From Arenibacter sp. F26102 (lineage in GTDB: Bacteria > Bacteroidota > Bacteroidia > Flavobacteriales > Flavobacteriaceae): 64,000 nt of DNA. Positions 6,149 through 50,958 of the stretch are shown piece by piece. The stretch is from contig NZ_JALKBC010000002.1 of NCBI RefSeq assembly GCF_023015865.1, forward strand, positions 1 to 64,000, written 5' to 3'. The position numbers and the translations under genes are program-made. The notes beneath the pieces are model-generated. The model saw only the letters and a program-made list of their open reading frames with translations, did not search any database and was not told the origin of the DNA. Position 1 is the stretch's first letter; every line of letters begins with the position of its first letter.

Positions 6149-6345
6149 CTATTGGTGATTTTTGTTTTTAATTGGCAGATGTAATTTGCCTATCATTAGT
6201 GGTCCATAAATTAAGAATTGTCAACATCAATTTCAAAATTAAGTTGTTTTCCATGGGACTGGAAGTTATACTTTTATTTATAAAAACAAAGTATTATTGG
6301 GATTGAAATAGACTTGATCAAATTTAAGCTTTATATGATCATAAC

Positions 6346-6365
6346 CTGTCCTGTGCTGTCCTGTC
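6346..6365 (-). promoter_or_regulatory. Operator-like site A
   Basis: Plus strand reads CTGTCCTGTGCTGTCCTGTC. In the sense of the downstream minus-strand gene this is two CAGGAC boxes spaced 10 bp start to start. It lies 197 bp before the sulfatase-GH78 start and matches site B at 17 of 20 positions. The regulator is inferred to be the GntR protein at 29890. Confidence 0.6.
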
Positions 6366-6424
6366 ATTAAATATACTTTTATTATATACTTGGAGTGGGG
6401 GAGTTGACATGCTTTGGGCAATAA

Positions 6425-6460
6425 AAAAAGGGATGAAAATTTTAATTTTCATCCCTTTTC
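6425..6460 (-). terminator. Terminator of the DUF1080 operon
   Basis: A perfect 15-bp stem (6426-6440 pairs with 6445-6459), four-base loop, with A/T runs on both sides. It lies just after the stop of the minus-strand gene ending at 6545. Confidence 0.85.
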
Positions 6461-6544
6461 CTATAGGAAATTTTTCAAGTTATAACAGAAGCCAAGAATT
6501 AAAGGTTGGGCTCTAATCTTCTTGAAAAGAAGCTATTGATATCA

Positions 6545-7348
6545 TTATAAATTCTTCAACCTTATATTTCTATATTCAACCTTCATAGGGGGGCCAACAT
6601 GTACCTGAACCCCCAAATACCCTGCGGATGTCTTGTTAACGTTGTCATCATCGATTACCTCGCTCATTAGAACGCCATTGATGTAATGCTGTAATTTGTT
6701 TCCTTTAATGATAAGGTGGGCTTCGTTCCAATCTTCACTCTTGATCTTTGTTTTTAATTCATCCGAGTCTCCAAGTGATTCCAAAATCTCCCTACTCTGC
6801 CAGGCATTCTTTGCTACATTGGCTCTTAAGTATCCTGGAGTATCAGGATTTGCCTGAGACGTTATTCTGGCCTTTTCACCTCTATAGGCCAAAGTAGTAC
6901 GCTTTTTCTCTTCATAGTTCTGCCCGGTATACCTTATTTTTCCATCAATATCGGCTTGATAACCGCGTAACGCAAAAGGAATGGTATCTACTTTTTCACT
7001 GCGATAGTTTATACCACTGTTACCGGCTTCCGCAATACGGAATTCGAGTTTCAGTTCAAAATCTGCAGGTTGTCCTCCTTGATAAATAATAAAGGTATTG
7101 TTCTTCAATAAAGTAGTGGGGGTTACCTCACCCACAAGATTTCCGTTCTCCACCCTCCAATAGTTGGGGTCTCCTTCCCAGTTATCAAGTGTCTTGCCAT
7201 CAAAGATTTGTACGAATCCGTCCTTTTCCGTTGTGGTCTCTGTCACTTCCTGGTTTGGTTTATCTTCTTTTTTTTCCTTGCAGGATTGTAAACCAATAAT
7301 TGCTATCAGTACTAATAATAAGGGCTTAAACGTTCTTTTCAAATTCAT
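6545..7348 (-). CDS. DUF1080 / 3-keto-disaccharide hydrolase-like lipoprotein
   Basis: A 267-residue protein with a lipobox ending LQSC (Cys23), so probably membrane-anchored. Residues about 43-265 are a DUF1080 domain: FVQIFDGKTLDNWEG at the start, then FELKLEFRI, GNSGINYRS and a C-terminal VEYRNIRLKNL, all usual for this beta-sandwich family. Some DUF1080 members hydrolyse 3-keto-glycosides, others are probably binding modules; activity here is inferred. It is the last gene of an operon, three bases after the FG-GAP gene. Its pairing with a cytochrome-bearing propeller protein suggests oxidation of a glycoside followed by cleavage. Confidence 0.88.
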   Translation of the reverse strand: MNLKRTFKPLLLVLIAIIGLQSCKEKKEDKPNQEVTETTTEKDGFVQIFDGKTLDNWEGDPNYWRVENGNLVGEVTPTTLLKNNTFIIYQGGQPADFELKLEFRIAEAGNSGINYRSEKVDTIPFALRGYQADIDGKIRYTGQNYEEKKRTTLAYRGEKARITSQANPDTPGYLRANVAKNAWQSREILESLGDSDELKTKIKSEDWNEAHLIIKGNKLQHYINGVLMSEVIDDDNVNKTSAGYLGVQVHVGPPMKVEYRNIRLKNL

Positions 7349-7351
7349 TGT

Positions 7352-8581
7352 TTATTGTTTAATAGGTTCGTTGTAATAAATGTATAGGCCATCCTTTCCG
7401 GCCACTATAATATCTTTGTTTCCATTTTTTTTCAAATCAGTAACACTAAAAAAGACTCCGGTTCCTTTTCCCTGACCATATGGACCATAATCAATAACTT
7501 GCTTACTGAAACTCTCCCCGTTCCACCTGAAATAATAGAGTCCAAGATCATCGTAACCCCCGGGATCTTTTCCATTATGGGCACGGTAACGCTTACCTGT
7601 TACGAGTTCGTTTTCCCCGTCCTGATCAATATCGGTCCATTCCATACTATGGTATTGGGAATTATAGGGGTCAATGGCGTGTTTTATCCATTGGGATTTC
7701 TGTTTCTTGGTAGCAATTTTTTGTTCATACCAAAATAAACCGTAATCATGGCCTTGACCAACAATAAGATCTGAAAGTCCATCCTTATTTACATCGGTTA
7801 CAATTATTGGTACGCATGCCGTGCCCAATTCAAAATCCTGATGAAGTTTCCATTTACCCGCATAGGGATCGTTAGGGGCTTCGAGCCAACCCTTTGGTGT
7901 AATAATGTCGTCCAATCCGTCACCATTTATATCACCAAAGCCCAACCCATGTCCTTGTGCACCAGAAATGGCGTGCTTAATGAACTTTCCTGCACCTTTT
8001 TTGTTTTTATCCAATTGCAATCTATAAATCACCAAAGAATCATTGGGAGTATTGGGGATTATTTCGATAGTGCCATCGCCATCCAAATCCCAAGAACGGG
8101 TGCTTTCAATGTTTCCTGCTTCAGCTATTAAATGTTCCTGCCATTCACCGCCATCACCAGGATTTTGCTTCCATATCAATTGTTTTCCAAACCAGCCGCC
8201 GGTAATAAAATCCATATTTCCATCCCCGTTAACGTCTAAAGGAATGGTGGAAAAATCATCATAATATTCGCCGTATCGTTTTGCTGAACCTATATAGTAA
8301 CGGGTTTGAAATTCTGGTCCCTTATACCAATATGCCCCGGAGACCAGGTCGAGTACGTTGTCGTTGTCTACATCGAACACCCCTACCGTTTCATAGCTTT
8401 CGGAAGCAATCTGTTGTTTGGTGAACTTTAAAGGTTTCGATTGTGCAATTATAAAAGAACCCATCAATAAAAAGACAGCGTTTATAAAAAGCGCTGCACC
8501 GCCTATGTTAATTACACTTAACATAAACGGTGCAGGTTTTTTTAACCTGAATAGGTCAATTCCTTTAATTGTTTTCGCCAT
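7352..8581 (-). CDS. FG-GAP/VCBS repeat protein
   Basis: A 409-residue protein built of beta-propeller repeats with six calcium-type loops: DVDNDNVLD, DVNGDGNMD, DLDGDGTIE, DINGDGLDD, DVNKDGLSD and DIDQDGENE. A long hydrophobic stretch near residues 38-57 is a signal or anchor. The first 18 residues before Met19 are unusual, so translation may begin at that internal Met. The gene begins two bases after the cytochrome-domain gene and ends three bases before the DUF1080 gene, so the three are surely co-transcribed. Function is unknown; such repeats bind ligands or partner proteins outside the cytoplasm. Confidence 0.85.
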   Translation of the reverse strand: MAKTIKGIDLFRLKKPAPFMLSVINIGGAALFINAVFLLMGSFIIAQSKPLKFTKQQIASESYETVGVFDVDNDNVLDLVSGAYWYKGPEFQTRYYIGSAKRYGEYYDDFSTIPLDVNGDGNMDFITGGWFGKQLIWKQNPGDGGEWQEHLIAEAGNIESTRSWDLDGDGTIEIIPNTPNDSLVIYRLQLDKNKKGAGKFIKHAISGAQGHGLGFGDINGDGLDDIITPKGWLEAPNDPYAGKWKLHQDFELGTACVPIIVTDVNKDGLSDLIVGQGHDYGLFWYEQKIATKKQKSQWIKHAIDPYNSQYHSMEWTDIDQDGENELVTGKRYRAHNGKDPGGYDDLGLYYFRWNGESFSKQVIDYGPYGQGKGTGVFFSVTDLKKNGNKDIIVAGKDGLYIYYNEPIKQ

Positions 8582-8583
8582 TC

Positions 8584-11265
8584 TTAATTATTGGCTTCCT
8601 TTTCTGAATAAATAGGATTTTCTGGATTTCCTCCAGCTACCAAATAGGCCAATAGGTCTTTCACTTCTTCTTCATTTAGTCTATTGATGGTTCCCGGGGG
8701 CATCCAAGAAATGCTGGACAGCTTAGTGTCCACCACTTGATCCTTAGGGATCTCACGGGTTTGATCGGGTGCATAGGGGTTTTGCGAGACAATATAATTT
8801 TGCTCGGTCTCGTTCATCAATCGTCCAGCGATTGATTTTCCGTCCTTCAGGGTGTACACCGTGGTATTATATTGGTCCGAAATTACATCGTTCGGTTCAA
8901 TAATGGCCTTGAGTATATCCTGGGGTGAAAAACGGGTCCCCAATTGCGTAAGGTCCGGCCCAATATTCTCTCCTTCACCTCGCATGGAATGACATGTGAT
9001 GCAAGTTGTAGCTGCAAACATGCTTTTACCGTACTCGAAATCCCTGCCTTTAAAGCCATCGGCCAATAATGGTTCTATTTCCTCCACTTTCCAATTGTGA
9101 CGTGGACCTTTGGGCTGTACGGTGGAAACGGCCAAATCGGTGCCTGAGCTTGACAACAGTTCGGCGCCCGACATTTTATCGTAAAACTCAAATTTATCCT
9201 TGGGTACATGGGTCAGCGCTTTTTTCCTGGCCTTGTCTATGAAACCGATATAGCTTCTTCCTGCCTTGAAGGAAAAGGCCTTGTTGAACCACTTGAAATA
9301 CTTTTTACGCAGTTCAGGAGTCCATCCCTTATCAACATCCTCCAGTACCATCCCGTAATAGGTATGCTGGGCGGGAGGCATATTTTTCAAAGTAAGGGCT
9401 ATATCCATTCCATATTGTGGATTTCTTAAAATAAGATCCGAAGCCTCTGTGGCCGTATTGGCCATGACATCCGAATTTTCCCCTGCTTTCGACTCTAATA
9501 GTGCCAATGTTTTGCTTGCCACGGTTGGGTCATCCAAGTAAGCAAGTGTTTTGCTCAGCATTTGGTTCAAGACATCTGTAGTTGCCGGATATTGCGGCGA
9601 AAGGTAATCGATGACCTTGTTCTTAACGGATTTCCCCGGTACCCCAAATCGGGACAAAGTTAGCTCAAATGCGCGTAACTGGTCCACTTGTTGTTGGGGT
9701 GTAAGCTTGGAGTAATCTACTTCCAAAAGGGCATTTAGCATCTGGTTTTGCTGTGATTTTTTGCCATGTCTGGCAAGGGCTATAATTCCCTGTGCCATGG
9801 TAACCGGATCCTTTTCGGAAAGCACTTTGCCCTGCCATTCCTTGACTGGCTGATGCTCCACCGCAATACGTGCCGCATATTGGATAAACCGGTCCGTGTT
9901 GTTCAGATACGGCCATGCAAAGTCGATTGCGCCGCTCTTTGGACCTGTATGATATTCTTCCAATTGTCTTCTAATCTTGTTCTCTTCGGTAAGTTCGGAT
10001 GCCTTGTTGGCAGCTGTTACAGCTTCGTTTCCGGTATAGTGTACCCGGTAAAGATCGGAATCCAATCTACGCCCTCCGGTCATGAAATACATGGCGCCAT
10101 CAGGACCTATAACCCCATCCGTCAAAGGAAGTGGGATCCCGGATAAAAATTCCTCCCTCTCCCCGTTATAGGAAGATCCATTGGCCTTTAGGTGAATGGC
10201 ATAAATGATACCAAAACTCCAATCGAAGGCATAAATGCTCTTTTGATATTTTTCTGGAAATTTCGCCCCTCTTCCGTAAACTACATTGGTAGGAGATCCC
10301 TGTCCAATATTTACGATGGCAGGAAGGTTGTCTGGATATGCCGGTGACCATTTTCCATTGCCCGTTCTCCAACCAAATTCGCTACCACTGGTAACATGGC
10401 AGATACGGGTAGGACGGTACCAAGACATACCCAAATCATATTCCATATCGGAATCGTATACAAACATGTCCCCTTCATCGTTAAAATCCAGATCAAATGG
10501 ATTTCGAAAACCGGCACTTATCAATTCCCAGGTTTTTCCTTCTGGATCAATTTTAGCAATCCAACCCCCAGGGGCTCCGCGGTCATTGGCATGACCACGG
10601 GGATCTTTGATCTGAGGAAACAAGTTGTCGTCTTGCCAAACCATGGGCAAACGATAAGCATCCATTTCTGGAAGATCGGTATGATTTCCTGCTATAACGT
10701 AAAGAGACTCACCGTCAGGACTTAAAACAATACTATGTGGGCCGTGCTCACCTGCACCGTTCAATGCTTTTAACTGGGTAATCTTATCATATTGGTCATC
10801 GTTATCCGTATCCTGCAAACGATAGAGCCCACTGCTCTTCTCGAATTCATTATTACCGCGATGGTTCACCATTACATATAGACTATTAAAAGCGTAGAGC
10901 AATCCCTGGGCATAACCCATTTGAATTATGGAGTCGGCCACGGCCTCCCCTGTCTGTATCCTGAGTTTTTCAATCTTAGGCGTCAATACGTCAGAACCTA
11001 TGGCAGGAAGCTCCAGGCGATATAAGGCACCGTGTTGATCTGCAGTAATCAGTCGGTCTTTGTGGTCGAAGGCCATGGCAACCCATGAGCCCTGATCGTT
11101 ATCGGCCGGACTGTACAGGTGTTCCGCCTCAAAGCCGGGCTGTAATTTAAGCTTTGCCAATTTTGGAGGAAGCTCCTGGCCACTTGCGGTTTCCATTTTC
11201 TCGGTATTCTCACAGGAAACGGACAAAAGCATTGAAAAAATAAGTACGGCAATTAGTCTGGTCAT
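8584..11265 (-). CDS. PVC-type heme protein: beta-propeller dehydrogenase-like, HEAT-like region, cytochrome c domain
   Basis: An 893-residue lipoprotein (Cys18 in LSVSC). Residues about 37-410 resemble the soluble quinoprotein/sorbosone dehydrogenase propeller (KLQPGFEAEHLYSP, VAMAFDHKDRLI, GPHSIVLSPDG, GFRNPFDLDFN). Residues about 430-700 are helical and HEAT-like. The C-terminus has a cytochrome c domain with heme site CITCH (755-759), NIGPDLT and a probable distal Met855 (SWMPPG). This is the TIGR02603-type PVC heme architecture. It probably oxidises a sugar or alcohol and passes electrons to the heme; the substrate is unknown. It leads a tight operon with FG-GAP and DUF1080 genes, and operator-like site B lies 115 bp before its start. 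Confidence 0.88.
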   Translation of the reverse strand: MTRLIAVLIFSMLLSVSCENTEKMETASGQELPPKLAKLKLQPGFEAEHLYSPADNDQGSWVAMAFDHKDRLITADQHGALYRLELPAIGSDVLTPKIEKLRIQTGEAVADSIIQMGYAQGLLYAFNSLYVMVNHRGNNEFEKSSGLYRLQDTDNDDQYDKITQLKALNGAGEHGPHSIVLSPDGESLYVIAGNHTDLPEMDAYRLPMVWQDDNLFPQIKDPRGHANDRGAPGGWIAKIDPEGKTWELISAGFRNPFDLDFNDEGDMFVYDSDMEYDLGMSWYRPTRICHVTSGSEFGWRTGNGKWSPAYPDNLPAIVNIGQGSPTNVVYGRGAKFPEKYQKSIYAFDWSFGIIYAIHLKANGSSYNGEREEFLSGIPLPLTDGVIGPDGAMYFMTGGRRLDSDLYRVHYTGNEAVTAANKASELTEENKIRRQLEEYHTGPKSGAIDFAWPYLNNTDRFIQYAARIAVEHQPVKEWQGKVLSEKDPVTMAQGIIALARHGKKSQQNQMLNALLEVDYSKLTPQQQVDQLRAFELTLSRFGVPGKSVKNKVIDYLSPQYPATTDVLNQMLSKTLAYLDDPTVASKTLALLESKAGENSDVMANTATEASDLILRNPQYGMDIALTLKNMPPAQHTYYGMVLEDVDKGWTPELRKKYFKWFNKAFSFKAGRSYIGFIDKARKKALTHVPKDKFEFYDKMSGAELLSSSGTDLAVSTVQPKGPRHNWKVEEIEPLLADGFKGRDFEYGKSMFAATTCITCHSMRGEGENIGPDLTQLGTRFSPQDILKAIIEPNDVISDQYNTTVYTLKDGKSIAGRLMNETEQNYIVSQNPYAPDQTREIPKDQVVDTKLSSISWMPPGTINRLNEEEVKDLLAYLVAGGNPENPIYSEKEANN

Positions 11266-11635
11266 TATCTTTTAGTTTTTAATTATGTGTCTAATATAAT
11301 TATTAATTAATTGGTGATTTCATTAAAATTTAGGAATAATCAAAGTGAATTACCAAAGATATAGGAGCCGTTGGATTTAACTGTCCTGTGCTGTACTGCA
11401 TTTTCCTGATAATTTTTTTTGATCTGATAATTTTCATATTTGTAGGTTATATTTAATACAGAATGGATTGAATTTTTATTGATAATGCTGGTGTTGTACA
11501 AAAAGGGGGGTGACCAGTCTTTTGATATATTGAACGGGGGCCTAATGGTATTTATCCCAAATGTTTTTATAACACCCAAAGATGAGTAAAAGGACATTAT
11601 AACAATGGTTTTTGTGTTTGGAAAAGCATATTTAA
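11266..11635. other. Intergenic region with operator site B
   Basis: About 370 bp, AT-rich. It holds operator-like site B. A minus-strand 85-codon frame (11340-11597) overlaps that site and has no recognisable product, so I treat the region as regulatory. Confidence 0.6.
11381..11400 (-). promoter_or_regulatory. Operator-like site B
   Basis: Plus strand reads CTGTCCTGTGCTGTACTGCA, 115 bp before the start of the PVC-type heme gene, in the same orientation relative to the gene as site A. Confidence 0.6.
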
Positions 11636-12598: not shown

Positions 12599-12809
12599 GA
12601 ATTTATTAATAAATTAAGGTTATTAGACAATGTTTGCTCAACGATCCTTAGAGTTTTCAATAATGTACAACAATATTATATAATATCGTTTGCGGTGTTC
12701 GAAGTAACACTGTTGCCTTCCCTCAATAAGAACTATTTGTTATTACGATATCATCAATAATTGGATCCACTTCAACAAGGCTGGGCTTGTTGAGATTTTT
12801 CTTTACATA

Positions 12810-14522: not shown

Positions 14523-14569
14523 TTATAGCTTATGGAGTTAAATGGTTTTTAAATAACAATGAAATGAAT

Positions 14570-16081: not shown

Positions 16082-16095
16082 ACTATAAAATTGTT

Positions 16096-19959: not shown

Positions 19960-20007
19960 TATAAAACATGTATTATTTGTTTTTAAAACTACTCCTTACT
20001 TTTTTTT

Positions 20008-20054
20008 AAACCATCCTGTTCTATCCTGTCAGACAGGATAGAACAGGATGGTTT
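20008..20054. promoter_or_regulatory. Operator-like site C: perfect inverted repeat between divergent genes
   Basis: Left arm 20011-20030 (CCATCCTGTTCTATCCTGTC) is the exact reverse complement of right arm 20032-20051, with one base between; three more flanking A/T pairs extend it. Each arm matches site A at 16 of 20 positions. Each arm is oriented toward the gene on its own side, 51 bp from the minus-strand start (19959) and 67 bp from the plus-strand start (20119). It could also form a cruciform or RNA hairpin, but its likeness to four other upstream sites favours a protein-binding site. Confidence 0.7.
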
Positions 20055-20118
20055 CTTTTAAAAAGCCGAATACATTTATCTATCATTTGAAATAATACAA
20101 ATTAGAAAAACTTTAATA

Positions 20119-21552: not shown

Positions 21553-21693
21553 GAAAATGAATAAATCAAATCTAAACTCAAAACCAGTGTAAACTAAATC
21601 CTCCAAAAATCCTTATCTCCAAGTTAATGGGAATTTAGTGATTATTGTTGGAATTTTTATAAAATATAAGTTAATGAAATACTTTACAATTAA

Positions 21694-21858
21694 TTCTTTT
21701 TTGTCGAAAGGCACCTTGTTAACAAAAAATATTTGAACACATTGAGTCTAACAATAAAATCCATGATGGAAGATTATTTGGCTTGTCGTGCCGAGTATCC
21801 TGATATGTCCAAAACTTGGACCAAAGCCTTTAATTTCCCAAGTACTGATTCAATATGA
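21694..21858 (+). pseudogene. Orphan 54-codon coding tail, possible gene remnant
   Basis: A frame open from 21694 to the TGA at 21856-21858 reads as ordinary protein (SMMEDYLACRAEYPDMSKTW) and overlaps the ATG of the next gene in an ATGA arrangement, as is common between coupled genes. There is no good start for a full protein and I do not recognise the family. It may be the end of a deleted gene, or a small gene starting at the ATG at 21763. The rest of the 300-bp gap around it shows nothing. Confidence 0.35.
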
Positions 21859-23981
21859 AATCCAGAAATAGTTTAAAATACAACTGGCCTTTTTACAAAG
21901 TGATAATAATAATCTCTTTAGTTCTTTCAGGTTGTAACCCCGAACCTAAGGTCTTTTTTGCCAATGAAGATTGGGCGGCTCCCGGAGGAAATCAAGGCCA
22001 AACAAAGTATTCGACTCTGGACCAAATTAATAAACATAATGTAGGGGGGCTCGAGGAAGCATGGACTTTCAATTCCGGAAATATGAAAGGTAACATACAA
22101 GTTAATCCACTTGTTGTTTCAGGGGTAATCTATGTAATCAGCCCTACCCAAGATCTTATAGCCATTGAAGGCACTAGCGGAGAAGAAATATGGCGTTTCA
22201 ATCCAGCAAGGAGTGGTGAAACTTTCGGTGGTGTAAACAGGGGACTCTCTTATTTTAAATCGAATGAATCCCAATGGATATTCTATACCTCCGGACCTTT
22301 CTTGAATGCTGTGGATGTTGCAACAGGTAAGGCCGTAAGTACGTTTGGCGATAAAGGCCGCATAAATATCAATGAAGGTTTAATTAAAGAGGCCGCCAAA
22401 ATGGGTATATCATCGCCTGGGGCCCCTATGATATATAGAGACAAAATTATAGTGGGCGCCATGAGTTGGAGCTCTCCTGCAAATATCAGTGCATTCAATG
22501 TGTTTACAGGAAAAAGAGAATGGATCTTCCACACCATACCAAGGCCTGAAAAGTATGGTTATGATACTTGGGGCGACAAGAATTTTTGGAAAGAAGGAGC
22601 GGGAGTAAATGTATGGGGCGGAATTAGTGTTGACGAAAGTAATGGCTTGGTGTTTTTTGCAACAGGACAGCCCAAAGATGATTTTTACCGACCAGACAAC
22701 AAGGGAAAACAATTATTTGGAAATTGTATTGTTGCATTAAATGCCGATACAGGAGAACTCAATTGGCACTACCAAGCCATTCACCACGACCTGTGGGACT
22801 TAGATCTGCCCTGTGCTCCCATTCTAACAACCCTTTTGGATAATGGCAAAAAAGTTCCTGGTGTCGTGCAGTTAAGTAAAACTGGAAATGTATTTCTTTT
22901 TAACCGGGTAACCGGAAAATTGTTATCCGATGTAGAGGAGCGTGCTGTTCCCCAGAGTCCTCTTTATGCTCAAAAGGCCTTTCCAACCCAGCCCTTTGTG
23001 AAATGGCCAGAGCCTATTTCCAAACAGGTGGTAACCGCTGATGAATTGACCAACATTAGCTCAGAAGCAAGATCCTACGCTTCCAAGACGTTTAATAGTG
23101 CGGATGCCGGTTGGTTTGTTCCACCATCAGAAAAAGGAATTATATATTATGGGATTCATGGTGGTGCAGAATGGGGAGGTGGGTCCTATAATCCCAAATC
23201 CAACACCCTCTTCGTAAATTCAAACGAGTTGGCGTGGCATATTACCATGCAAAATATTAATTCAGACGAAAAAGATAGCACACACAAACACCCGGGAAGA
23301 AATTTTTATCTGGAGAGAGGATGTGTTAGTTGCCATGGCACAGACCTAGAAGGTGAAGGGAGTATCCCTTCGTTAGAGAATCTGGACAGGAAATATAGCC
23401 AACAGGAAATATCTCAAATTATATCCAAGGGCAAAGGAGCCATGCCTTCTTTTTCTCAAATTCCGGAAGATGAATTACAGTTAATTTCAGCATACTTAAT
23501 AGATCTCGAAATAGATATGGACGAATCAAAGATAAATGATACTATAAAAGCCCCTTATTACAAAGCCATTGCCTATACCAAATTTTTAGACGAAAAGGGA
23601 TATCCGGCAACTGCCCCTCCTTGGGGAACTTTAAATGCACTTGATTTAATCACAGGTAAAATTAAATGGAAAGTGCCGTTGGGAGAATACCCGGAACTTA
23701 CCGAAAAGGGAATTCCAATAACTGGAACCGAAAATTTTGGAGGTAGCATCGCTACTGCCGGGGGGGTTATATTTATTGGCGCGACAAGAGACAGGAAGTT
23801 TAGGGCATTTGATCAGGACACTGGGAAAATTTTATGGGAGTATCAATTGCCATATGGAGGCTATTCCACTCCCAGTACCTTTATGGCTAAAGGAAAACAG
23901 TATGTCATTATTCCGGCCACAGGAGGTGGGAAGCTTGGCAAACCAACGGGGGATACCTATTTTGCTTTTGCACTGCCCTGA
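21855..23981 (+). CDS. PQQ-dependent dehydrogenase with inserted cytochrome c domain
   Basis: A 708-residue lipoprotein (lipobox LSGC, Cys27). The N-terminal half is an eight-bladed PQQ propeller of the membrane glucose/alcohol dehydrogenase type (EDWAAPGGNQGQTKYSTLDQI, LVVSGVIYVISP, YQAIHHDLWDLDLP). A cytochrome c domain with heme site CVSCH (490-494) and possible Met ligand in GAMPSF is inserted before the last blades (APPWGTLNALDLITGKIKW, GGSIATAGGVIFIGATRD). It should oxidise a sugar in the periplasm and reduce its own heme; the substrate is unknown. It follows the sulfatase at 20119 and is 38 bp before a double-ThuA gene, so an oxidative step in glycan use is likely. Confidence 0.9.
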   Translation: MKSRNSLKYNWPFYKVIIIISLVLSGCNPEPKVFFANEDWAAPGGNQGQTKYSTLDQINKHNVGGLEEAWTFNSGNMKGNIQVNPLVVSGVIYVISPTQDLIAIEGTSGEEIWRFNPARSGETFGGVNRGLSYFKSNESQWIFYTSGPFLNAVDVATGKAVSTFGDKGRININEGLIKEAAKMGISSPGAPMIYRDKIIVGAMSWSSPANISAFNVFTGKREWIFHTIPRPEKYGYDTWGDKNFWKEGAGVNVWGGISVDESNGLVFFATGQPKDDFYRPDNKGKQLFGNCIVALNADTGELNWHYQAIHHDLWDLDLPCAPILTTLLDNGKKVPGVVQLSKTGNVFLFNRVTGKLLSDVEERAVPQSPLYAQKAFPTQPFVKWPEPISKQVVTADELTNISSEARSYASKTFNSADAGWFVPPSEKGIIYYGIHGGAEWGGGSYNPKSNTLFVNSNELAWHITMQNINSDEKDSTHKHPGRNFYLERGCVSCHGTDLEGEGSIPSLENLDRKYSQQEISQIISKGKGAMPSFSQIPEDELQLISAYLIDLEIDMDESKINDTIKAPYYKAIAYTKFLDEKGYPATAPPWGTLNALDLITGKIKWKVPLGEYPELTEKGIPITGTENFGGSIATAGGVIFIGATRDRKFRAFDQDTGKILWEYQLPYGGYSTPSTFMAKGKQYVIIPATGGGKLGKPTGDTYFAFALP

Positions 23982-24019
23982 CAAATAAATTTTTAATACA
24001 GATATAATTACAGTACTAA

Positions 24020-25606
24020 ATGAAAAATTTCACTTTAAAGATTATCAAGACGCTTCTTTTAGTTTTGATTTCAGTAGGCACTATTACTGCCCAAAAGACA
24101 AACGGAAAGAAAAAAATTGTTCTTTTGGCGGGTGCAAAAAGCCACCCAGCTGACTTTCATGAATACATAAAAACAGTCCGCCTTATCAAGGTAATGCTCG
24201 ATAACTCGAATGTTAAAAATTTAGAAACAGAAATTCACTACAATGGATGGCCTGAGAATGAAAGCACCTTAGAAGATGCAGATTTGATATTAAACGTTTC
24301 TGATGGATATGATGGTATAGAAGGGACTCCCTTTGCTCCTGTGACATTCCGTACGCCTGAAAGGATGAAACTTATAGAAAGGCTTATGAAAAGGGGATGT
24401 GGATTTATCACCATGCATTTCTCGACCTTTATCAGAGATAGGGAAGGCAAACAAGTACTTGATTGGGTGGGAGGCTATTTTGACTGGCAAGGCGATACCG
24501 GGGAGAAATATTGGTATTCCTCCATAAAGACTATTTCTGCGGCTATAAAAAGAGAATCTTTGGGCGAACATCCAATTACTAATGGCGTGGAACCATTTTC
24601 TTTAAAAGAAGAATTTTATTATAATATAAGGTTTAAAGAAAACGATAAACGGTTAAAGCCCATACTCACTATTTCGGAATTGGAGACTGAACAAGAGAAT
24701 GGAAAAGTAGTAGCTTGGGCTGTAGAAAGGGAGGATGGTGGTCGTGGGTTTGGCACAACAATGGGGCATTATTATGACAATTGGGAAAACGAGAATTATA
24801 GAAAACTTCTCTTGAATGCGATCGTTTGGACTGCTGGAATGAAGGTTCCTAAAAACGGTGTAAAATCAAGATTTTATGATGATAAGGAAGTTACTCAAAA
24901 TCTTTTTGGAAAATCTCTTAAAGCACTTATTTTTACTGGTAACCATCACCCAGGTCATCACTGGAAGGAAACAACCCCTGTTTTAAAAGAAATATTGGAG
25001 AAAGATTCCCAAATGAAAGTTGATATCTCCATTAATATTGAAGATTTAAATCAATATAACATCGAGGATTACGATGTTTTACTTCTGAATTATTGCAACT
25101 GGGAAGATCCAAAAGGTATTAGCAATCGATCTAAAGAGGCCTTGGTCAACTATATGAAAAAGGGTGGGGGATTGGTAAGCGTCCATTTTGCGAATGGGGC
25201 TTTCCATTATTCTTTGCCAAATGCCAGTGAATCGGATTGGCCAGAATACCGGCAAATTATACCGCGTGTCTGGAATCATGGAGTAAGTAGTCATGATAAT
25301 TATGGTGAGTTTATCGTTAATATTGTAGATGCCAATAGTGTCATTACAAAAGGTCTTAAGCCATTTAAAACTGTTGATGAACTATACTTCAATCAGGCCG
25401 GGGACATTCCAATAACTCCATTGTTAACGGCAACATCAAAAATAACGGGCAAGGATGAACCTTTAGCATGGACACACCAATACCAAAAGGGAAGGGTTTT
25501 TCAAATTCTCTTAGGGCATAGTACTGAGTCACTAGAGATTCCAGAAGTTCAGAAAGTAATAAAAAGTGGGGCAGAATGGTCAGCAGGAAAATTAAACACT
25601 GAATAA
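24020..25606 (+). CDS. Secreted protein with two tandem ThuA-like domains
   Basis: A 528-residue protein with signal peptide 1-25. The first ThuA-like domain (about 33-275) starts KIVLLAGAKSHPADFHEY and contains GCGFITMHFSTF; the second (about 295-525) starts KALIFTGNHHPGHHW and contains GGGLVSVHFANGAF and GRVFQILLGHSTES. Both keep the family pattern of a class I glutamine-amidotransferase-like fold ending in a GHxxES/GHYYDN loop. ThuA proteins recur with sugar dehydrogenases, DUF1080 proteins and cytochromes; their reaction is not firmly known. It is in an operon with the PQQ dehydrogenase. It may cover the loss of the broken ThuA gene at 11636. Confidence 0.85.
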   Translation: MKNFTLKIIKTLLLVLISVGTITAQKTNGKKKIVLLAGAKSHPADFHEYIKTVRLIKVMLDNSNVKNLETEIHYNGWPENESTLEDADLILNVSDGYDGIEGTPFAPVTFRTPERMKLIERLMKRGCGFITMHFSTFIRDREGKQVLDWVGGYFDWQGDTGEKYWYSSIKTISAAIKRESLGEHPITNGVEPFSLKEEFYYNIRFKENDKRLKPILTISELETEQENGKVVAWAVEREDGGRGFGTTMGHYYDNWENENYRKLLLNAIVWTAGMKVPKNGVKSRFYDDKEVTQNLFGKSLKALIFTGNHHPGHHWKETTPVLKEILEKDSQMKVDISINIEDLNQYNIEDYDVLLLNYCNWEDPKGISNRSKEALVNYMKKGGGLVSVHFANGAFHYSLPNASESDWPEYRQIIPRVWNHGVSSHDNYGEFIVNIVDANSVITKGLKPFKTVDELYFNQAGDIPITPLLTATSKITGKDEPLAWTHQYQKGRVFQILLGHSTESLEIPEVQKVIKSGAEWSAGKLNTE

Positions 25607-26321
25607 TGAACATATCAGATATTCACTAAGTCTCTATTTACAAATAGGTGTTGTTTTAACAAAATCAAGTAATAAATCTCAATCGTTTTCTGGATAATAC
25701 TTATTGGTGAGTAAAAAAAGATTGACCTTGGATATCGGTAATATTCGGAGATAAATAATAACCTGAGCCCAATTGAGCTAATTATCTACCGTTCCTTTAA
25801 AAAAACAATATACTTTTTCGACTATTTTGTGCGACTGGATATATTCTTGATTATAAATATTAATAGATGGAGTTTTATCATCTATTATTAGATTACAATT
25901 GGAATATTTTTGATAACAAATTCTACTACCTGCTTATATTTTGAGAATCATGATATCTATTAATTTTTAGGTATACCTCAATATAAGTATTACTGTAAAT
26001 TTTCAATAAATAATTTCAGCAACTTTATAATCAGGTCACCATAATAAATTGTTCAAATTTAATTATACAGGCCATCTTTGGCACTTATTGTTTCTAAGAT
26101 CTCAAAAAAGGATACTTATTACAGGACACAGCAGGACGGAAACAGGGCAACACGGGTTTATTTTTGAGATAATAAAACTATGAAGATACTTAAGTTAAAA
26201 GGATTATGTAAATAATTTCAAGTATGTTAAACACCATTGCGACGAGATTAAAACGTAATAATTGTGCGACGATTAAATAGAATTATTTCTTGGCATTTTA
26301 ATATAATTAATTCTGATAGTT
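25607..26321. other. Long AT-rich intergenic region with operator site D
   Basis: About 715 bp with no convincing coding frame on either strand. The only structured element I see is operator-like site D (26121-26140) about 180 bp before the next gene. Confidence 0.6.
26121..26140 (+). promoter_or_regulatory. Operator-like site D
   Basis: Plus strand reads ACAGGACACAGCAGGACGGA: two CAGGAC boxes spaced 10 bp, as in site A (14 of 17 core positions identical). It lies 181 bp before the GTG of the putative glycosidase gene and faces it in the usual orientation. Confidence 0.55.
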
Positions 26322-28265
26322 GTGAAACTAAAAACATTTTTAACATTTTTAATTTTAACAGCAACAGGTTGCGCTACAGCTCAAACTGCTGAAAATTCAA
26401 ATGCTTTAAACAGTTCTCGACCAGCAATGAAGGAACTACCAATGCCAACGAAATCAGGAAAGGTGTTTGCACCTGTTGTTGATATCATGCCGCACCTAAG
26501 AGGATTTCATGATTATAAAAAGGTACGTGAAGAAATGGTCTTTTTAAAAGAGTTAGGTTTTAAAAGAGTTTATTTTGTACTGGGTCAACCTGGTTATTCA
26601 TCTTTCTCTGACCCAACTATATCGGTTATGTCACCTGATAAGGGTACGGGAAATCATATGCTAGAATCTATTTTAGCGCTTGGGGATCCGAACTTTGCAT
26701 ATTTATATGAAGCCCAAAGATTAGGTATGGAGGCTTGGGCAATCATAAAACCATATGAATCAGGAACAGGGTTTACAATTCCGCATGACGCCAATGCACC
26801 ACTTAGCAGAAAGCAGATAGAAACTATTGGCGGGCAGCATATCAATTTTGATAATTTAATAGCGGATAATCCAGAGTTAAGAGTAAAAAGAAAACCCGAA
26901 CAAGATGCTATTCTAAATAGGCTAAATGAGCCTATAAAAACATTGGAAGTTGCTTTTAGTTTGGATTCTTTCAGACAAAAGGCTTCTTCTAATACATATT
27001 TTGAATTTAAGGGATTGAAAGATTCGGAAATTCAAATCCCAGAAATTACGCTTTGGCATAGTCAAGATAATGGTAAATATGTAAAATATGAAGGCGATAT
27101 TGAAGTAGAATCAAAATTTGAACATCGTCAAGTAGAAGATGCGAATGGTTTTTTAGTATCGGAAAAGCCAAAGCGTTTACTGGTATTAACGGTTAAAAAT
27201 TTTAGTTTACCTGAAAAACATCCGTATTTGGCAATAACCTTTGATCAGCATAAAGGTTTATATACAATTCCCTATTCTATGATAAAAGCATTTACTCGTT
27301 CAGGGGAGATACCACTTACCACAGGTTTACATGTTAGAAGCCCCTTAAGTGAAGCGGAAGGTGCGACATCTCCGAAAAAAAGAGAATGGGGCTTGGAAAA
27401 TCACACTGCTAAAGGTGAAAAAGCGGCCAAGTTGTTCAAGGATTGGGGCTTTGAATTTGAATTTCAAGGTGCCGGATTTTGGGGTGATGGTTGGGTTAAT
27501 AGCCCTGTTTATGGAATTGCAAAAGGGAAACGAAAATATATGGGTGGAACCCCATGCGAAGCTTACCCTGAGGTACAAAAATATTGGATAGACCAGGTTG
27601 AGCGTGTTGTGAAAATGGGTTTTGATGGTATTGATTTTAGACTCCAAAACCATTCGGGAATGGTCTCCGATTACGTAAACTATGGATACAATGAGCCGAT
27701 TATAAAACGTTATAAGGAAAAATATGGAGTTGATATTCTAAAGGCAGAAGCAGAGCCATTGAAAATTATGGAAATAAGAGGTGAATATTTCTTGTCGTTT
27801 CTTGAAAAGGCAGCAGATGTTCTGCATTCATCGGGTAAAAAAATGCAAGTAAGTTTGCGCCATGCACATGAGGCACCTTTATTGTCCGATGACTTTAATG
27901 AATTAGGCTTCTGGGCTATGCCCAAGATATTACTTGATTGGAAAAAGGCCATTGATTTGGCTGATGAGGTAACTATTAAACATTATTATCATGGTGATTA
28001 CCGACCTTGGATGAGTGATAAAATTAAAACATATGCAAGTCATCAGGGAAAGCATGTATGGGTACATAATTACTTTACCCAAGGGGATGGGGTTAATTAT
28101 GATTTTTTAAATACTATAGAAGAAGATGAAAGAATAAGTGGCGTCTTATTGTATGAAGTGAATAGAGGACTTTTATATACTGGTTTCCCTGAACAAAAGT
28201 GGGGACAAAATGTAGAGAATATTAATAAATTACATAATGTTTTACATAAATTAAACAAGAACTAG
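26322..28265 (+). CDS. Putative glycoside hydrolase-like lipoprotein of unknown family
   Basis: A 647-residue lipoprotein starting at GTG; this start is chosen because it gives a complete signal peptide with lipobox TATGC (Cys17) and no ATG serves. The N-terminal part (PVVDIMPHLRGF, VREEMVFLKELGFKRVYFV) and the C-terminal part (GFDGIDFRLQNHSGM, KKMQVSLRHAHEAP, DLADEVTIKHYYHGDYRPW, GVLLYEVNRG) look like the strands of a TIM-barrel glycosidase. A beta-rich segment of about 150 residues (about 205-310) is inserted between them. Acidic residues in DGIDFR and LLYEVNRG are candidate catalytic groups. I cannot place it in a numbered GH family. Site D upstream ties it to the rhamnose regulon. Confidence 0.6.
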   Translation: MKLKTFLTFLILTATGCATAQTAENSNALNSSRPAMKELPMPTKSGKVFAPVVDIMPHLRGFHDYKKVREEMVFLKELGFKRVYFVLGQPGYSSFSDPTISVMSPDKGTGNHMLESILALGDPNFAYLYEAQRLGMEAWAIIKPYESGTGFTIPHDANAPLSRKQIETIGGQHINFDNLIADNPELRVKRKPEQDAILNRLNEPIKTLEVAFSLDSFRQKASSNTYFEFKGLKDSEIQIPEITLWHSQDNGKYVKYEGDIEVESKFEHRQVEDANGFLVSEKPKRLLVLTVKNFSLPEKHPYLAITFDQHKGLYTIPYSMIKAFTRSGEIPLTTGLHVRSPLSEAEGATSPKKREWGLENHTAKGEKAAKLFKDWGFEFEFQGAGFWGDGWVNSPVYGIAKGKRKYMGGTPCEAYPEVQKYWIDQVERVVKMGFDGIDFRLQNHSGMVSDYVNYGYNEPIIKRYKEKYGVDILKAEAEPLKIMEIRGEYFLSFLEKAADVLHSSGKKMQVSLRHAHEAPLLSDDFNELGFWAMPKILLDWKKAIDLADEVTIKHYYHGDYRPWMSDKIKTYASHQGKHVWVHNYFTQGDGVNYDFLNTIEEDERISGVLLYEVNRGLLYTGFPEQKWGQNVENINKLHNVLHKLNKN

Positions 28266-28452
28266 GTTAGAAAACTAGGAGATTATTGAATTGTGTCATT
28301 GCTAATCCCAATGGAGTTTGATAGAACGAAAATAACTTCCTGTTCATGGAAATGATAAAGTATACATAAACCGACCGATAGTGATATTAACTATGGTAAC
28401 ATATTTTTAGGTGCATTGTAGAAATACACACTTGAACATTAATATATCAATT

Positions 28453-29637
28453 ATGAAAATATCAAAACTGATCATTAGTAATATAGTACTTTTAATCTAT
28501 TTTCTTTCAGGAGTAGTCTTGGCACAAAGCAACGATTCATTTCTACTACCCCCAGAGGTGATTATGTTACCTGAGAAAACCGGTATTCATTCACCGGCTA
28601 AAAGAAAATTCACGGGTATTCCCAGCGTGGCGATAAGCCCCGAAGGGCGTTTGTGGTCCACCTGGTATACCGGCCCTACTCCCCATGAGGATTTAAATAA
28701 TTATGTTGTACTATCTACCAGTGGTGATAATGGAAATACCTGGCAGGAGGTATTAGTGATAGACCCTGACGGCCCGGGAGAAGTCAGGGCATATGATCCT
28801 GAGATATGGATTGATCCCGATGGAAAACTTTGGGTATTTTGGGCACAGGCTGCTGCTCTTGGTAATGGAGCAACGGTTTTGATAGAAGAAGGGACGGCGG
28901 CCGGAGTATGGGCTATAAAAGCCGATAATCCAGAATTAGAGGACCCAAGTTGGGGTGCACCGGTCAGAATTACCGATGGTGTAATGATGTGCAAACCATT
29001 AAAGTTGTCGACAGGAGAATGGACATTGCCGGTTTCTATTTGGAAAAAGAAGCCAAATAATGCAAGAATGGTAGTCTCCACGGATAAAGGGGTTACCTGG
29101 AAGGTCTGGGGAGGTGCATCCGTACCCGATGATGTAAGGTCTTTTGATGAAAATATAATTATCGAAAGAAAGGACGGTTCGCTATGGATGCTTATACGTA
29201 CAAAATATGGAATTGGCGAGAGTATTTCAAAAGATCGTGGTACTTCATGGTCCCCAGTTGCCCCATCGGCAATATCCCATCCGTCAGCCAGATTTTTTTT
29301 AACCAGATTAAAATCAGGGAACCTATTGCTTGTTAAACATGGCCCAATTGATGTGAAAATTGCACGCTCTCATTTAATGGCATTCATTTCAAAGGATGAT
29401 GGAAAATCTTGGTCAAGCGGTTTGTTAATTGATCAGCGAAACGGTGTTTCCTATCCCGATGGACAGGAAACCGAAGATGGAAAAATATATATTGTTTACG
29501 ACTACAATAGGACAACAAACCAGAATATTTTTATCACAAGTTTTACTGAAAAAGATATACTATCAAATGATTATGACAAAAGCATAATAAAAATTTATAA
29601 CAATAGAAAGATAGTAAGTGAGGGTGGAAAAGATTAA
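28453..29637 (+). CDS. Secreted BNR/sialidase-fold glycosidase-like protein
   Basis: About 394 residues from the ATG at 28453, which gives a clean signal peptide (MKISKLIISNIVLLIYF...VLAQ). An upstream in-frame GTG at 28411 would put 14 hydrophilic residues before it and is less likely. Four Asp-box motifs mark a six-bladed sialidase-type propeller: STSGDNGNTWQE, STDKGVTWKVW, SKDRGTSWSP and SKDDGKSWSSG. SYPDGQETEDGKIYIVYDYNR near the end is usual for the family. No sialic acid catabolic gene is in the window, so a different exo-glycosidase or lyase activity, or a binding role, is more likely than true sialidase. Confidence 0.8.
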   Translation: MKISKLIISNIVLLIYFLSGVVLAQSNDSFLLPPEVIMLPEKTGIHSPAKRKFTGIPSVAISPEGRLWSTWYTGPTPHEDLNNYVVLSTSGDNGNTWQEVLVIDPDGPGEVRAYDPEIWIDPDGKLWVFWAQAAALGNGATVLIEEGTAAGVWAIKADNPELEDPSWGAPVRITDGVMMCKPLKLSTGEWTLPVSIWKKKPNNARMVVSTDKGVTWKVWGGASVPDDVRSFDENIIIERKDGSLWMLIRTKYGIGESISKDRGTSWSPVAPSAISHPSARFFLTRLKSGNLLLVKHGPIDVKIARSHLMAFISKDDGKSWSSGLLIDQRNGVSYPDGQETEDGKIYIVYDYNRTTNQNIFITSFTEKDILSNDYDKSIIKIYNNRKIVSEGGKD

Positions 29638-29889
29638 TAACTGTTTATTTCAATACATACTTATATGGCCTTACTCATATTGGGCATTACCGAATTCAGT
29701 TTTATTTTGTTTTCAGGAGCATTTTAGGGGCTTATAGAAAATAATATTCTTCCTGTTTTAGACTCTCTCATATATTTACCTAACTACACATTATATTACA
29801 TATTTTTTGATTTATTCCAAACTGCAAAAACCGAGAAATTAGGTGTTAATTTTGTTATGTAAGCGCTATGGATGTAAGTCATGAAGATT

Positions 29890-30930
29890 TTAAATTGAAT
29901 TTCTATCTATAAAATTAAATGGGTTTTTGATTTTCCCTTTTTCCTTGTTCAGAATCATGCGGGAAGCAGTTTCACCCATAACCTTAAAGTCTGTAGAAAT
30001 AACGGTAATGCCCAATAATTCCTTTAATGGGGTGTCGTTATAGGATATGACCCCTATCTCAACGCCTAAAATAAACTCCTTGTCCCGGATTTGGTTTACC
30101 AAGCTTACCAAGTCGTTTTCTTCAATGGTAATAAATAGATCACCCTTCTTAAGGATGATATCATCAAAAATTTCATCCAAAACCTCGAAATCTATTTTGT
30201 GTTCTACACAAAATTTGCGAAAGCCGTGCAAAATTCTTCTGGGATAAGGATATACGGCACTTTCGGGATAGACCAAAATCAGTTTTCCATATCGCGAAAT
30301 CTTTGCCAGTCCTTCCTTGAGGGCATTGTAGATATCATTCTCAAAATCCTGATAGATTTCAATGAAATCCCCTTCAATTTCAAGATTATTATTGTCCATC
30401 ATTACTAATTTATTCTTTGGGATCATATTGATGGCCTTAATGCCTTCATCGGTAGAACTAATGTGTTTAAGATCGCCCGTCTTAAAATGCGGCATGATGA
30501 CGTAATAATCATATACATTGATGTTCTTCTCTAGAATATTTAAAAAAAGTGAGTTGTCGCAATGATAAATATGCAGGTCTGTATGGGAATTACCTCCTAT
30601 GGTATTTATAAAGGAATTGTAAATGCGCATTTTATAGGCGCTCAACTTATTTATTAGGAATAGTATATTGACCTTGGATATAAGTTTTGTTCTGGTTATG
30701 TAATAACCTTTGCCCCTTATGGAGGTAATTATCTTACGTTCCTTTAATATCTGGTAAGCCTTTTCAACAGTATCCCTGGAAAGCAAAAATTCCTCGCTCA
30801 AGCTATTGATGGAAGGTATTTTGTCATCGATCTTTAAATTTCCATTGGAAATATTATTGATGACAGAATCTACTAGCTGCCTATATTTAGGGATCCTGGA
30901 ATTTTCATCTATTTTGAGGTATTTGAACAT
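29890..30930 (-). CDS. GntR-family regulator with sugar-binding-like C-terminal domain
   Basis: A 346-residue cytoplasmic regulator. Residues about 10-80 are a GntR winged helix (PKYRQLVDSVINNI, KIDDKIPSINSLSEEF, SRDTVEKAYQILKE, IRGKGYYI). Residues about 88-340 resemble a LacI/periplasmic-binding-protein sensor domain (VNILFLINKLSAYKMRIYNSF, FILGVEIGVISYNDTPLKELL, GETASRMILN). It is divergent from the rhamnose catabolic operon, with 231 bp between starts that contain site E, the usual position for a local regulator controlling both itself and the operon. The likely effector is rhamnose or a derived intermediate; this is inference. Confidence 0.9.
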   Translation of the reverse strand: MFKYLKIDENSRIPKYRQLVDSVINNISNGNLKIDDKIPSINSLSEEFLLSRDTVEKAYQILKERKIITSIRGKGYYITRTKLISKVNILFLINKLSAYKMRIYNSFINTIGGNSHTDLHIYHCDNSLFLNILEKNINVYDYYVIMPHFKTGDLKHISSTDEGIKAINMIPKNKLVMMDNNNLEIEGDFIEIYQDFENDIYNALKEGLAKISRYGKLILVYPESAVYPYPRRILHGFRKFCVEHKIDFEVLDEIFDDIILKKGDLFITIEENDLVSLVNQIRDKEFILGVEIGVISYNDTPLKELLGITVISTDFKVMGETASRMILNKEKGKIKNPFNFIDRNSI

Positions 30931-31084
30931 ATCTAAGCTAATCTATAATAATGGTAATTTAAAATAATAAGTCTGCCGCTATTGTTTATTCTTCAATAAT
31001 AAGCTATTTAATTTTAAATTTATTTATAAAATTAAGCACTTTTGGTTTCAGGAAGGTCGATAAAATTAAAAAAAAATCACTGCT

Positions 31085-31104
31085 TGCAGTACAGTACAGG
31101 ATGC
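31085..31104 (+). promoter_or_regulatory. Operator-like site E
   Basis: Plus strand reads TGCAGTACAGTACAGGATGC, matching the reverse complement of site B at 16 of 20 positions. It is 57 bp before the aldolase/dehydrogenase start and also within the divergent promoter region of the GntR gene, so autoregulation is possible. Confidence 0.6.
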
Positions 31105-31161
31105 ATACAGGAGAACTGTGCAATACTTTAGCAATCATAAAACTTTTGAAGCTATTAAATT

Positions 31162-33267: not shown

Positions 33268-33299
33268 TTAGTGAGTGAGTTTGAGTTAGTTTTTTTTAG

Positions 33300-33335
33300 G
33301 ACCTGTCAGGGTAGAGTACCAATTCCTGACAGGTC
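33300..33335. repeat. Inverted repeat between rhaEW and rhaI
   Basis: Arms of 11 bp (33300-33310, GACCTGTCAGG, and 33325-33335) separated by 14 bases. There is no T run after it on the plus strand, so it is not a standard terminator; it may be an RNA-processing or attenuation hairpin. The CCTGTC core recalls the operator motif but the spacing differs. Confidence 0.6.
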
Positions 33336-33355
33336 TAATTCTAATCGGGAATATA

Positions 33356-34636: not shown

Positions 34637-34645
34637 TACAATCAA

Positions 34646-36019: not shown

Positions 36020-36135
36020 TTAGTAACATAATTAAATTCAAACTATGTTGAGCCTACTCAATTTTATGACCTTAAAAAATAAATCATAATTGAACATTAA
36101 TCAGACACCATAACCTAAAATAACAACCAACCACT

Positions 36136-50931: not shown

Positions 50932-50958
50932 CTTATTAAATAGAGTTTTTATCTTAAA

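What the first reader, a model, noticed from the sequence alone, without database searches (positions are those of the whole stretch)
6346..31104. A shared operator motif upstream of six transcription units defines a rhamnose/sulfated-glycan regulon
Five intergenic places carry a 20-bp motif (sites A 6346, B 11381, C 20011 twice, D 26121, E 31085). In the sense of the following gene each reads two CAGGA(C) or closely related boxes (CAGTAC in B and E) 10-11 bp apart. Pairwise identities are 17/20 (A-B), 16/20 (A-C), 16/20 (B-E) and 14/17 (A-D). Orientation relative to the downstream gene is the same in all six cases, at 51-197 bp before the start. The targets are the sulfatase-GH78 fusion, the heme-propeller operon, the two-barrel protein, a sulfatase/PQQ operon, a putative glycosidase and rhaEW. 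A direct-repeat site of one helical turn is unusual for GntR proteins, which often bind palindromes. The GntR gene at 29890 is the only regulator in the window. This is the best candidate for an undescribed regulatory system here.
Basis: partly seen in the sequence, partly recalled or inferred. Interest (0 to 1): 0.85.

Follow-up and report, generated by a model that had tools for sequence, protein, structure and literature searches.

The report
Rhamnose-regulon switch at fixed promoter distance
In marine flavobacteria a seaweed-sugar regulator appears to mark its target genes with a tandem DNA repeat placed at one fixed distance before the core promoter box, which suggests it switches genes on rather than off and lets the rhamnose regulon be read from sequence.

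Summary
All six sites exist and point at the downstream gene; the repeat is CAGKAYAGNA-CAGGAYRG, period 10 bp. In the 5.44-Mb genome a composite search (motif, 20 bp, TAnnTTTG) gives 13 places with at most 2 mismatches: the six in the window and seven in a second cluster with GH78/GH106 rhamnosidases, sulfatases and SusC/D; 3 other places have 3 mismatches. Of 199 family genomes 33 hold the exact motif: 32 have a >=54% GntR ortholog, one a 44% relative beside rhaEW. The new point is geometry: 71 of 84 sites have the flavobacterial -7 box (at most 1 mismatch) starting exactly 37 bp after the motif's first base, background 1.3%. The repeat thus spans about -49 to -33, centred near -41, in place of the -33 element: class II activator geometry. 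Two paralogous GntR groups carry related tandem repeats at their own genes (33 of 34 and 15 of 20 loci), which ties the motif to this protein family. Best reading: an AraR-like GntR/LacI-fold chimera binding head-to-tail as activator of rhamnose, ulvan and rhamnogalacturonan genes. Binding, ligand and sign of regulation are untested.

The parts
6347..6363 (-). Site A, CAGGACAGCACAGGACA; upstream of sulfatase-GH78 fusion
6319..6326 (-). -7 box TAAATTTG of site A at +37
11382..11398 (-). Site B, CAGTACAGCACAGGACA; upstream of heme/FG-GAP/3-keto-disaccharide hydrolase genes
11354..11361 (-). -7 box TATCTTTG of site B
20012..20028 (-). Site C1, CAGGATAGAACAGGATG; upstream of DUF5722 protein
19984..19991 (-). 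-7 box TAGTTTTA of C1 (1 mismatch)
20034..20050 (+). Site C2, same sequence in inverted arrangement; upstream of sulfatase/PQQ/ThuA genes
20071..20078 (+). -7 box TACATTTA of C2 (1 mismatch)
26122..26138 (+). Site D, CAGGACACAGCAGGACG (weakest); upstream of the 26322 gene
26159..26166 (+). -7 box TATTTTTG of site D
31087..31103 (+). Site E, CAGTACAGTACAGGATG; upstream of rhaEW
31124..31131 (+). -7 box TACTTTAG of site E (1 mismatch)
29890..30930 (-). GntR-family regulator, winged HTH plus LacI/PBP-like sensor domain
   Evidence: Pfam GntR 3.9e-12; model mean pLDDT 88.4; best-ranked folds include SghR, LacI and RbsR
2630..6148 (-). target: sulfatase fused to GH78 alpha-L-rhamnosidase
6545..11265 (-). 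target genes (operon inferred): heme-binding CxxCH protein (8584), FG-GAP (7352), 3-keto-disaccharide hydrolase (6545)
16096..19959 (-). target: DUF5722 protein
20119..25606 (+). target genes (operon inferred): sulfatase, PQQ dehydrogenase-like, ThuA
26322..28265 (+). target: 647-aa protein without Pfam or NCBIfam match at E 0.001
31162..37542 (+). target genes (operon inferred): rhaEW, rhamnose isomerase, FGGY kinase, NCS1-like symporter

Best explanation
The GntR protein at 29890-30930 is the regulator of L-rhamnose and rhamnose-polymer (ulvan/rhamnogalacturonan) use. Two subunits bind head-to-tail to two 8-bp half-sites one helical turn apart (CAGKAYAG and CAGGAYRG), on one DNA face. The site as a rule sits 20 bp upstream of the TAnnTTTG -7 box, spanning about -49 to -33, so it takes the place of the -33 element. 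From there the protein most likely contacts sigma/RNA polymerase as a class II activator when its LacI-like domain holds a rhamnose-derived ligand. Shown by sequence: sites, spacing, orientation, targets, co-occurrence, paralog motifs, predicted fold. Inferred: binding by this protein, head-to-tail dimer, activation, ligand.
For: Own genome: 13 composite hits with at most 2 mismatches, all in two sugar clusters; 3 more at 3 mismatches; reversed-pattern control 1. Motif-only near-hits outside the clusters: 19 of 19 loci looked at have 2 or more mismatches to the box (30 of the 125 hits had loci). 199 genomes: motif in 33, reversed control 3 matches; 32 of the 33 have a >=54% ortholog and G064 a 44% relative beside rhaEW; Fisher p about 1e-27 without correction for kinship. 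75 of 77 intergenic sites with a callable downstream gene point at it. Box at exactly +37 in 71 of 84 sites against 1.3% background. Of 30 rhaEW promoters located by protein, not by the motif, 28 have site and spacing (one of them is the window's own, and the scoring matrix came from this genome's sites). Paralogs: 33 of 34 group-2 and 15 of 20 group-3 loci carry related tandem repeats before their own gene (patterns were drawn up from the same loci); as a wider check the group-2 pattern has 29 matches in 199 genomes (reversed control 4), 22 of the 29 within 100 bp of a listed paralog start. Seven motif genomes (G030, G064, G080, G144, G172, G176, G190) show a single family member with every candidate scored; G184 too, with 3 candidates unscored. 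Recognition helix SRDT.EKAY invariant in the 30 sequences.
Against: No binding or expression data. True rhaEW is in 47 genomes and each also has the GntR (42 the >=54% ortholog, 5 a 41-44% relative), so co-occurrence alone cannot separate the GntR from another rha-linked regulator. 10 of 42 ortholog genomes lack an exact match, though matrix scans find sites near the gene or rhaEW in them. G024 and G037 have no site before rhaEW, and G020 and G108 only a weak one. The tandem reading beats the palindromic one only modestly (0.52 against 0.26 per position), although the exact core GTACAGTAC is in 19 of 86 sites. One true-cluster site (C14:42126) has 2 mismatches to the box, no better than one outside hit. 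Five of 20 group-3 loci have no site. AraR and FucR are repressors as I recall.
Confidence: 0.66

Rival explanations
1. The GntR is a classical repressor: the tandem site overlaps the -33 region, blocks RNA polymerase, and is released by a rhamnose intermediate.
For: AraR (B. subtilis) and FucR are repressors as I recall; in 11 of 15 group-3 loci with a site it starts 13 bp after the start of the -7 box, a repressor position, and group-2 sites lie 20-40 bp before the box.
Against: Repression needs neither a spacing fixed to the base across unrelated promoters nor one orientation. The bases where a -33 TTG (recalled) would lie read GGAYR, so these promoters show no -33 box and should be weak unaided. 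About half of the group-2 sites also lie 35-40 bp before the box, so placement near -33 is not by itself proof of activation.
Confidence: 0.22
2. Another regulator (AraC type, hybrid two-component or PhoB-like) located elsewhere binds the motif; the GntR is only a neighbour.
For: AraC-type RhaR and HTCS use direct repeats (PMC3870299, PMC3878776, passages); this geometry is common for AraC and PhoB types (recalled). Regulators elsewhere in the genome were not surveyed.
Against: Those AraC/HTCS repeats are spaced about 21 bp, here 10. GntR paralogs carry kindred repeats at their own genes; seven motif genomes show only this member of the family; no other DNA-binding domain in the 25 scanned window proteins.
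Confidence: 0.08
3. The motif is a long -33 element read by an alternative sigma factor such as an ECF.
For: Fixed spacing to the downstream box; the C14 cluster holds an ECF sigma/FecR pair with its own site.
Against: The downstream box is of the housekeeping TAnnTTTG type (PMC9723704, passages: sigma-A box at -12 to -5; its ECF-like motif has a CGT box instead). A 17-bp tandem repeat is longer than a sigma -35 element (recalled).
Confidence: 0.03
4. Chance or low-complexity repeats.
For: Short units, rich in A and G.
Against: Shuffles, reversed-pattern controls and spacing statistics.
Confidence: 0.01

Closest known systems
AraR subfamily of GntR regulators (Bacillus subtilis AraR)
   Same: GntR winged helix joined to a LacI/GalR-like domain; control of sugar and polysaccharide genes (PMC4494728, passages).
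   Different: AraR is a repressor of arabinose genes with palindromic sites (recalled); here 10-bp tandem repeats near -41 and rhamnose targets. No direct comparison with AraR beyond phmmer matches of the HTH.
RhaR/RhaS regulators of AraC, DeoR and LacI families (survey PMC3870299, passages)
   Same: Rhamnose regulon; DeoR-type RhaR sites are direct repeats with 10-11 bp period.
   Different: Other protein families; the term GntR has 0 occurrences in that paper's main text. Bacteroides RhaR is AraC type with 21-bp repeats.
GntR proteins with direct-repeat sites (NanR, NagQ, FarR; MocR types GabR, TauR, PdxR)
   Same: GntR-type DNA-binding domain with direct instead of inverted repeats (PMC4494728, passages).
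   Different: FadR, HutC or MocR types by that paper, other half-sites; no fixed promoter geometry of this kind in the passages seen.
Bacteroides FucR (BT1272) and ManR (BT2103)
   Same: GntR regulators of monosaccharide genes in Bacteroidota (PMC3878776, table passage).
   Different: FucR regulon is a single operon by that paper; its motif was not in the passages seen. Relationship by sequence not tested.

Membership tests
GntR superfamily | GntR winged HTH at N-terminus | tested here: met
   PF00392 3.9e-12, residues 15-78
AraR subfamily (GntR-LacI chimera) | LacI/PBP-like sensor domain | tested here: met
   Foldseek best hits are LacI-family structures, E about 1e-12, TM (query) about 0.5; Pfam Peripla_BP_3 only 19.7 bits, below its 26.5 cut-off
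AraR subfamily (GntR-LacI chimera) | palindromic GT...AC operator | tested here: not met
   tandem shift 10 scores above every inverted register tried; exact palindromic core in 19 of 86 sites
AraR subfamily (GntR-LacI chimera) | repressor released by L-arabinose | not testable with these tools
   needs biochemistry; targets here are rhamnose genes
DeoR-type RhaR | DeoR HTH and sensor | tested here: not met
   no DeoR model among the Pfam and NCBIfam matches listed
DeoR-type RhaR | direct repeats with 10-11 bp period | tested here: met
   10-bp period; a likeness of site architecture only
AraC-type RhaR / HTCS | AraC HTH and about 21-bp direct repeats | tested here: not met
   no AraC domain in the GntR; period 10
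Class II activator promoter | site centred near -41 with fixed spacing and orientation | tested here: met
   71 of 84 at exactly +37 to the -7 box; 75 of 77 same orientation; transcription starts are predicted, not mapped
Class II activator promoter | bound protein raises transcription by contacting RNA polymerase | not testable with these tools
   no expression data available
ECF/alternative sigma promoter | non-housekeeping -10 element | tested here: not met
   TAnnTTTG box, described as sigma-A in PMC9723704

The most novel reading that the evidence does not exclude
An undescribed class of sugar-sensing GntR/LacI chimeras in Bacteroidota binds head-to-tail on 10-bp CAGNA-type repeats. One branch has become a class II activator that replaces the -33 element and so wires scattered polysaccharide loci into one rhamnose regulon readable from sequence, while sister branches kept repressor-like sites at their own promoters.
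Probability: 0.6. Interest if true: 0.72.

Novelty: new variant of a known kind. Interest (0 to 1): 0.62.

Why it matters
Regulation of polysaccharide loci in marine flavobacteria is usually guessed from neighbouring regulators. Here one composite sequence (repeat, 20 bp, TAnnTTTG) picks out targets across a whole genome with little background, including a second locus on another contig and genes of unknown function (DUF5722, the 647-aa protein, an NCS1-like symporter). If activation is right, a GntR protein works in a way unusual for its family, with repressor-like sisters at hand for comparison, and there is a candidate flavobacterial rhamnose-responsive promoter.

Tried and rejected
Palindrome reading: GTACAGTAC exists but in 19 of 86 sites only, and the inverted register scores below the tandem one (0.26 against 0.52). 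Near-matches elsewhere in the genome (C1, C11, C55, C77, C84 and others) were followed up for 19 loci; none has a -7 box with at most 1 mismatch at +37, so they are probably chance. Co-occurrence as proof of the GntR: not sufficient, because every genome with true rhaEW also has the GntR or a 41-44% relative; paralog motifs were used as well. Structure prediction gives a monomer and cannot test a head-to-tail dimer.

Literature: eight searches. From titles, abstract starts and counts I saw no paper on a GntR rhamnose regulator or this motif in Flavobacteriia; some searches listed only the best 20 of 51, 20 of 69 and 8 of 19. Passages were read in PMC3870299, PMC3878776, PMC4494728, PMC5698469, PMC9723704 and PMC12858550; everything else was seen as a listing only, among it PMC12125979, which names GntR once. 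This is absence from those searches of an open-licence library, not proof of absence.

Rows dropped: searches used 84 of 86 sites (two too close to a locus end). One search took 78 downstream proteins for 83 sites (the three C14 sites left out beforehand, five sites without an ORF); many are cut at about 1.5 kb, and one search showed 25 of 56 families. The 31 rhaEW sites leave out G024 and G037, which have none. rhaEW promoters were read for 33 of 47 genomes. In the first Fisher set 'orth+div' I counted G020, G037, G064 and G108 as holders of a divergent GntR; G024 (42%, some 12 kb from rhaEW) is among the 153 others. One search ran on the window alone because the loci files were not found under the names used; one search repeated it.
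Full report
What was checked. The six sites A, B, C (twice), D and E are in the sequence at the given places. With up to 3 mismatches the pattern gives 16 window matches against 5.6 in shuffles, none of 100 shuffles reaching 16. The repeat is CAGKAYAGNA followed by CAGGAYRG, a 10-bp period.

Whole genome. The window is part of contig C22 of a 5.44-Mb genome in 84 contigs. The eight exact matches to CAGKAYAGNACAGGA lie in C22 (five, all in this window) and in a second contig, C14 (three). C14 is 43 kb long with GH78 and GH106 rhamnosidases, sulfatases, two SusC/SusD pairs, an ECF sigma/FecR pair and a transposase (one SusC and one SusD were judged by N-terminal sequence). Seven sites lie there. 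Six are close before a gene reading the same way (for the GH106 gene the first in-frame ATG is at 20383, about 50 bp from the site); the one at 16091 lies some 540 bp before its gene. The regulator's closest relatives in named records are in Arenibacter (97% identity), so the genome is probably Arenibacter (inference).

Geometry. When 84 of 86 exact sites from 33 genomes are aligned on the motif, one further signal stands out: TAnnTTTG, the flavobacterial sigma-A -7 box, starts 37 bp after the first motif base in 71 of 84 sites (at most 1 mismatch) and in 9 more with 2 mismatches; the rate at other offsets is 1.3%. In this genome 12 of 13 sites have it with at most 1 mismatch and one (C14:42126) with 2. 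PMC9723704 (passages) places the box at -12 to -5, so the motif spans about -49 to -33 with its centre near -41. The bases where a -33 TTG box (recalled) would be read GGAYR. A composite search of the whole genome with at most 3 mismatches returns 16 places: 13 with at most 2, all in the two clusters, and 3 elsewhere with 3; the reversed control returns 1. Of motif-only near-matches outside the clusters, 19 of 19 loci looked at have 2 or more mismatches to the box.

Orientation and place. 83 of 86 sites are intergenic by a simple ORF model; the other three lie in ORFs of 99-118 codons. 75 of 77 with a callable downstream gene point at it; the two exceptions (L144, L162) were not followed up. 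Many sites are orthologous (17 of 78 target proteins are rhaEW), so these are not 86 independent events.

Targets. Of 78 target proteins, 17 are rhaEW, 14 TonB/SusC, 8 sulfatases, 5 GH88, 4 GH106, 3 GH28, 2 GH43, 2 3-keto-disaccharide hydrolases, 2 sigma factors, and single cases of UxaC, RGL11, an ulvan-lyase-type domain, GH3, RhaT and a sugar transporter (25 of 56 families shown). This fits ulvan and rhamnogalacturonan use.

Who binds. Of 199 family genomes, 33 have the exact motif (reversed control: 3 matches). 32 of these are among the 42 genomes with a GntR ortholog of at least 54% identity; the last, G064, has a 44% relative beside rhaEW, 8.6 kb from its site. None of the remaining 153 genomes has it; they include G024, with rhaEW and a 42% relative, and many with paralogs only. 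Kinship is not corrected for. True rhaEW is found in 47 of the 199 and always with the GntR or a 41-44% relative, so this alone does not single out the GntR. In rhaEW promoters located by the protein, 28 of 30 have site and spacing; the promoter-near box TACAGGAYA is nearly invariant, the far box varies. Of the divergent set, G064 has a recognisable site, G020 the near box only, G108 a weak site, G024 and G037 none.

Paralogs give the stronger evidence. Group 2 (36-43% identity) has ACYRGTACCTACYRGT or a variant before its own gene in 33 of 34 loci; group 3 (33-37%) has CAGAACAGAACAGAACRG, up to 3 mismatches, in 15 of 20. These patterns were drawn up from the same loci, so the counts describe rather than test; the wider check is that the group-2 pattern occurs 29 times in 199 genomes (reversed control 4) and 22 of the 29 lie within 100 bp of a listed paralog start. 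Both motifs repeat with a 10-bp period and share CAG(T/A)A-like units with the rhamnose motif. Seven motif genomes show a single member of this protein family with all candidates scored. In named records, 16 of 19 Bacteroidota loci carry a composite site with at most 3 mismatches in the 7 kb around the gene; Arenibacter latericius and two of three Lewinella-type loci do not.

The protein. GntR winged helix plus a domain with LacI/PBP fold (model mean pLDDT 88.4). The recognition helix is invariant in 30 sequences but for one position. This is the architecture of AraR, but the site is tandem rather than palindromic; the margin between the two readings is modest.

How it works. Tandem half-sites one turn apart imply two subunits in the same direction on one face. 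The strict distance and orientation across unrelated promoters, and the missing -33 box, are what a class II activator needs and a repressor does not. The sister groups look more like autorepressors: group-2 sites lie 20-40 bp before the box (two clusters, 20-26 and 35-40, with a few between), and 11 of 15 group-3 sites start 13 bp after its first base. The fixed offset in group 3 may reflect orthology of one promoter. I put activation at about 0.72 given that the GntR binds, and binding by the GntR at about 0.9; these are judgements.

Known and new. PMC3870299 (passages) lists AraC, DeoR and LacI regulators of rhamnose use; GntR does not occur in its main text. PMC4494728 (passages) names GntR proteins with direct repeats of the FadR, HutC and MocR types. 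In the searches named under 'tried and rejected' I saw no report of this motif or geometry.

Noticed in passing
window 36136-37542: NCS1-like symporter (weak TIGR00800 match below cut-off, no Pfam hit) behind the rha genes; proteins with the same N-terminus in L100 and L136 have their own motif site: candidate rhamnose transporter.
   Followed up: partly
window 20009-20053: Two copies of the site in inverted arrangement between divergent genes, each with its own -7 box on the outer side.
   Followed up: yes
G000:C14 (L031-L033): Second rhamnose-polymer locus with seven sites, an ECF sigma/FecR pair that itself has a site (a possible cascade) and a transposase (rve domain).
   Followed up: partly
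L260, L259, L265 upstream of GntR paralogs: Rhamnose-type motifs also lie upstream of other GntR-LacI paralogs (L260 exact; L259 and L265 by eye): possible cross-regulation within the family.
   Followed up: partly
L185-L218, L248-L267: Two paralog groups with their own tandem 10-bp motifs before their own genes; their other targets and sugars are unknown.
   Followed up: partly
window 26322-28265: 647-aa target protein without a Pfam or NCBIfam match at E 0.001.
   Followed up: no
window 42243-49267: Two adjacent proteins of about 1170 aa (the one scanned has FG-GAP repeats and UnbV_ASPIC) next to SusC/SusD at 49393-54057; no composite site there.
   Followed up: no
L066, L067 (G152, G071): GntR orthologs with an altered wing (PRRG instead of the usual RGKG or KGKG); whether the site differs was not tested.
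   Followed up: no
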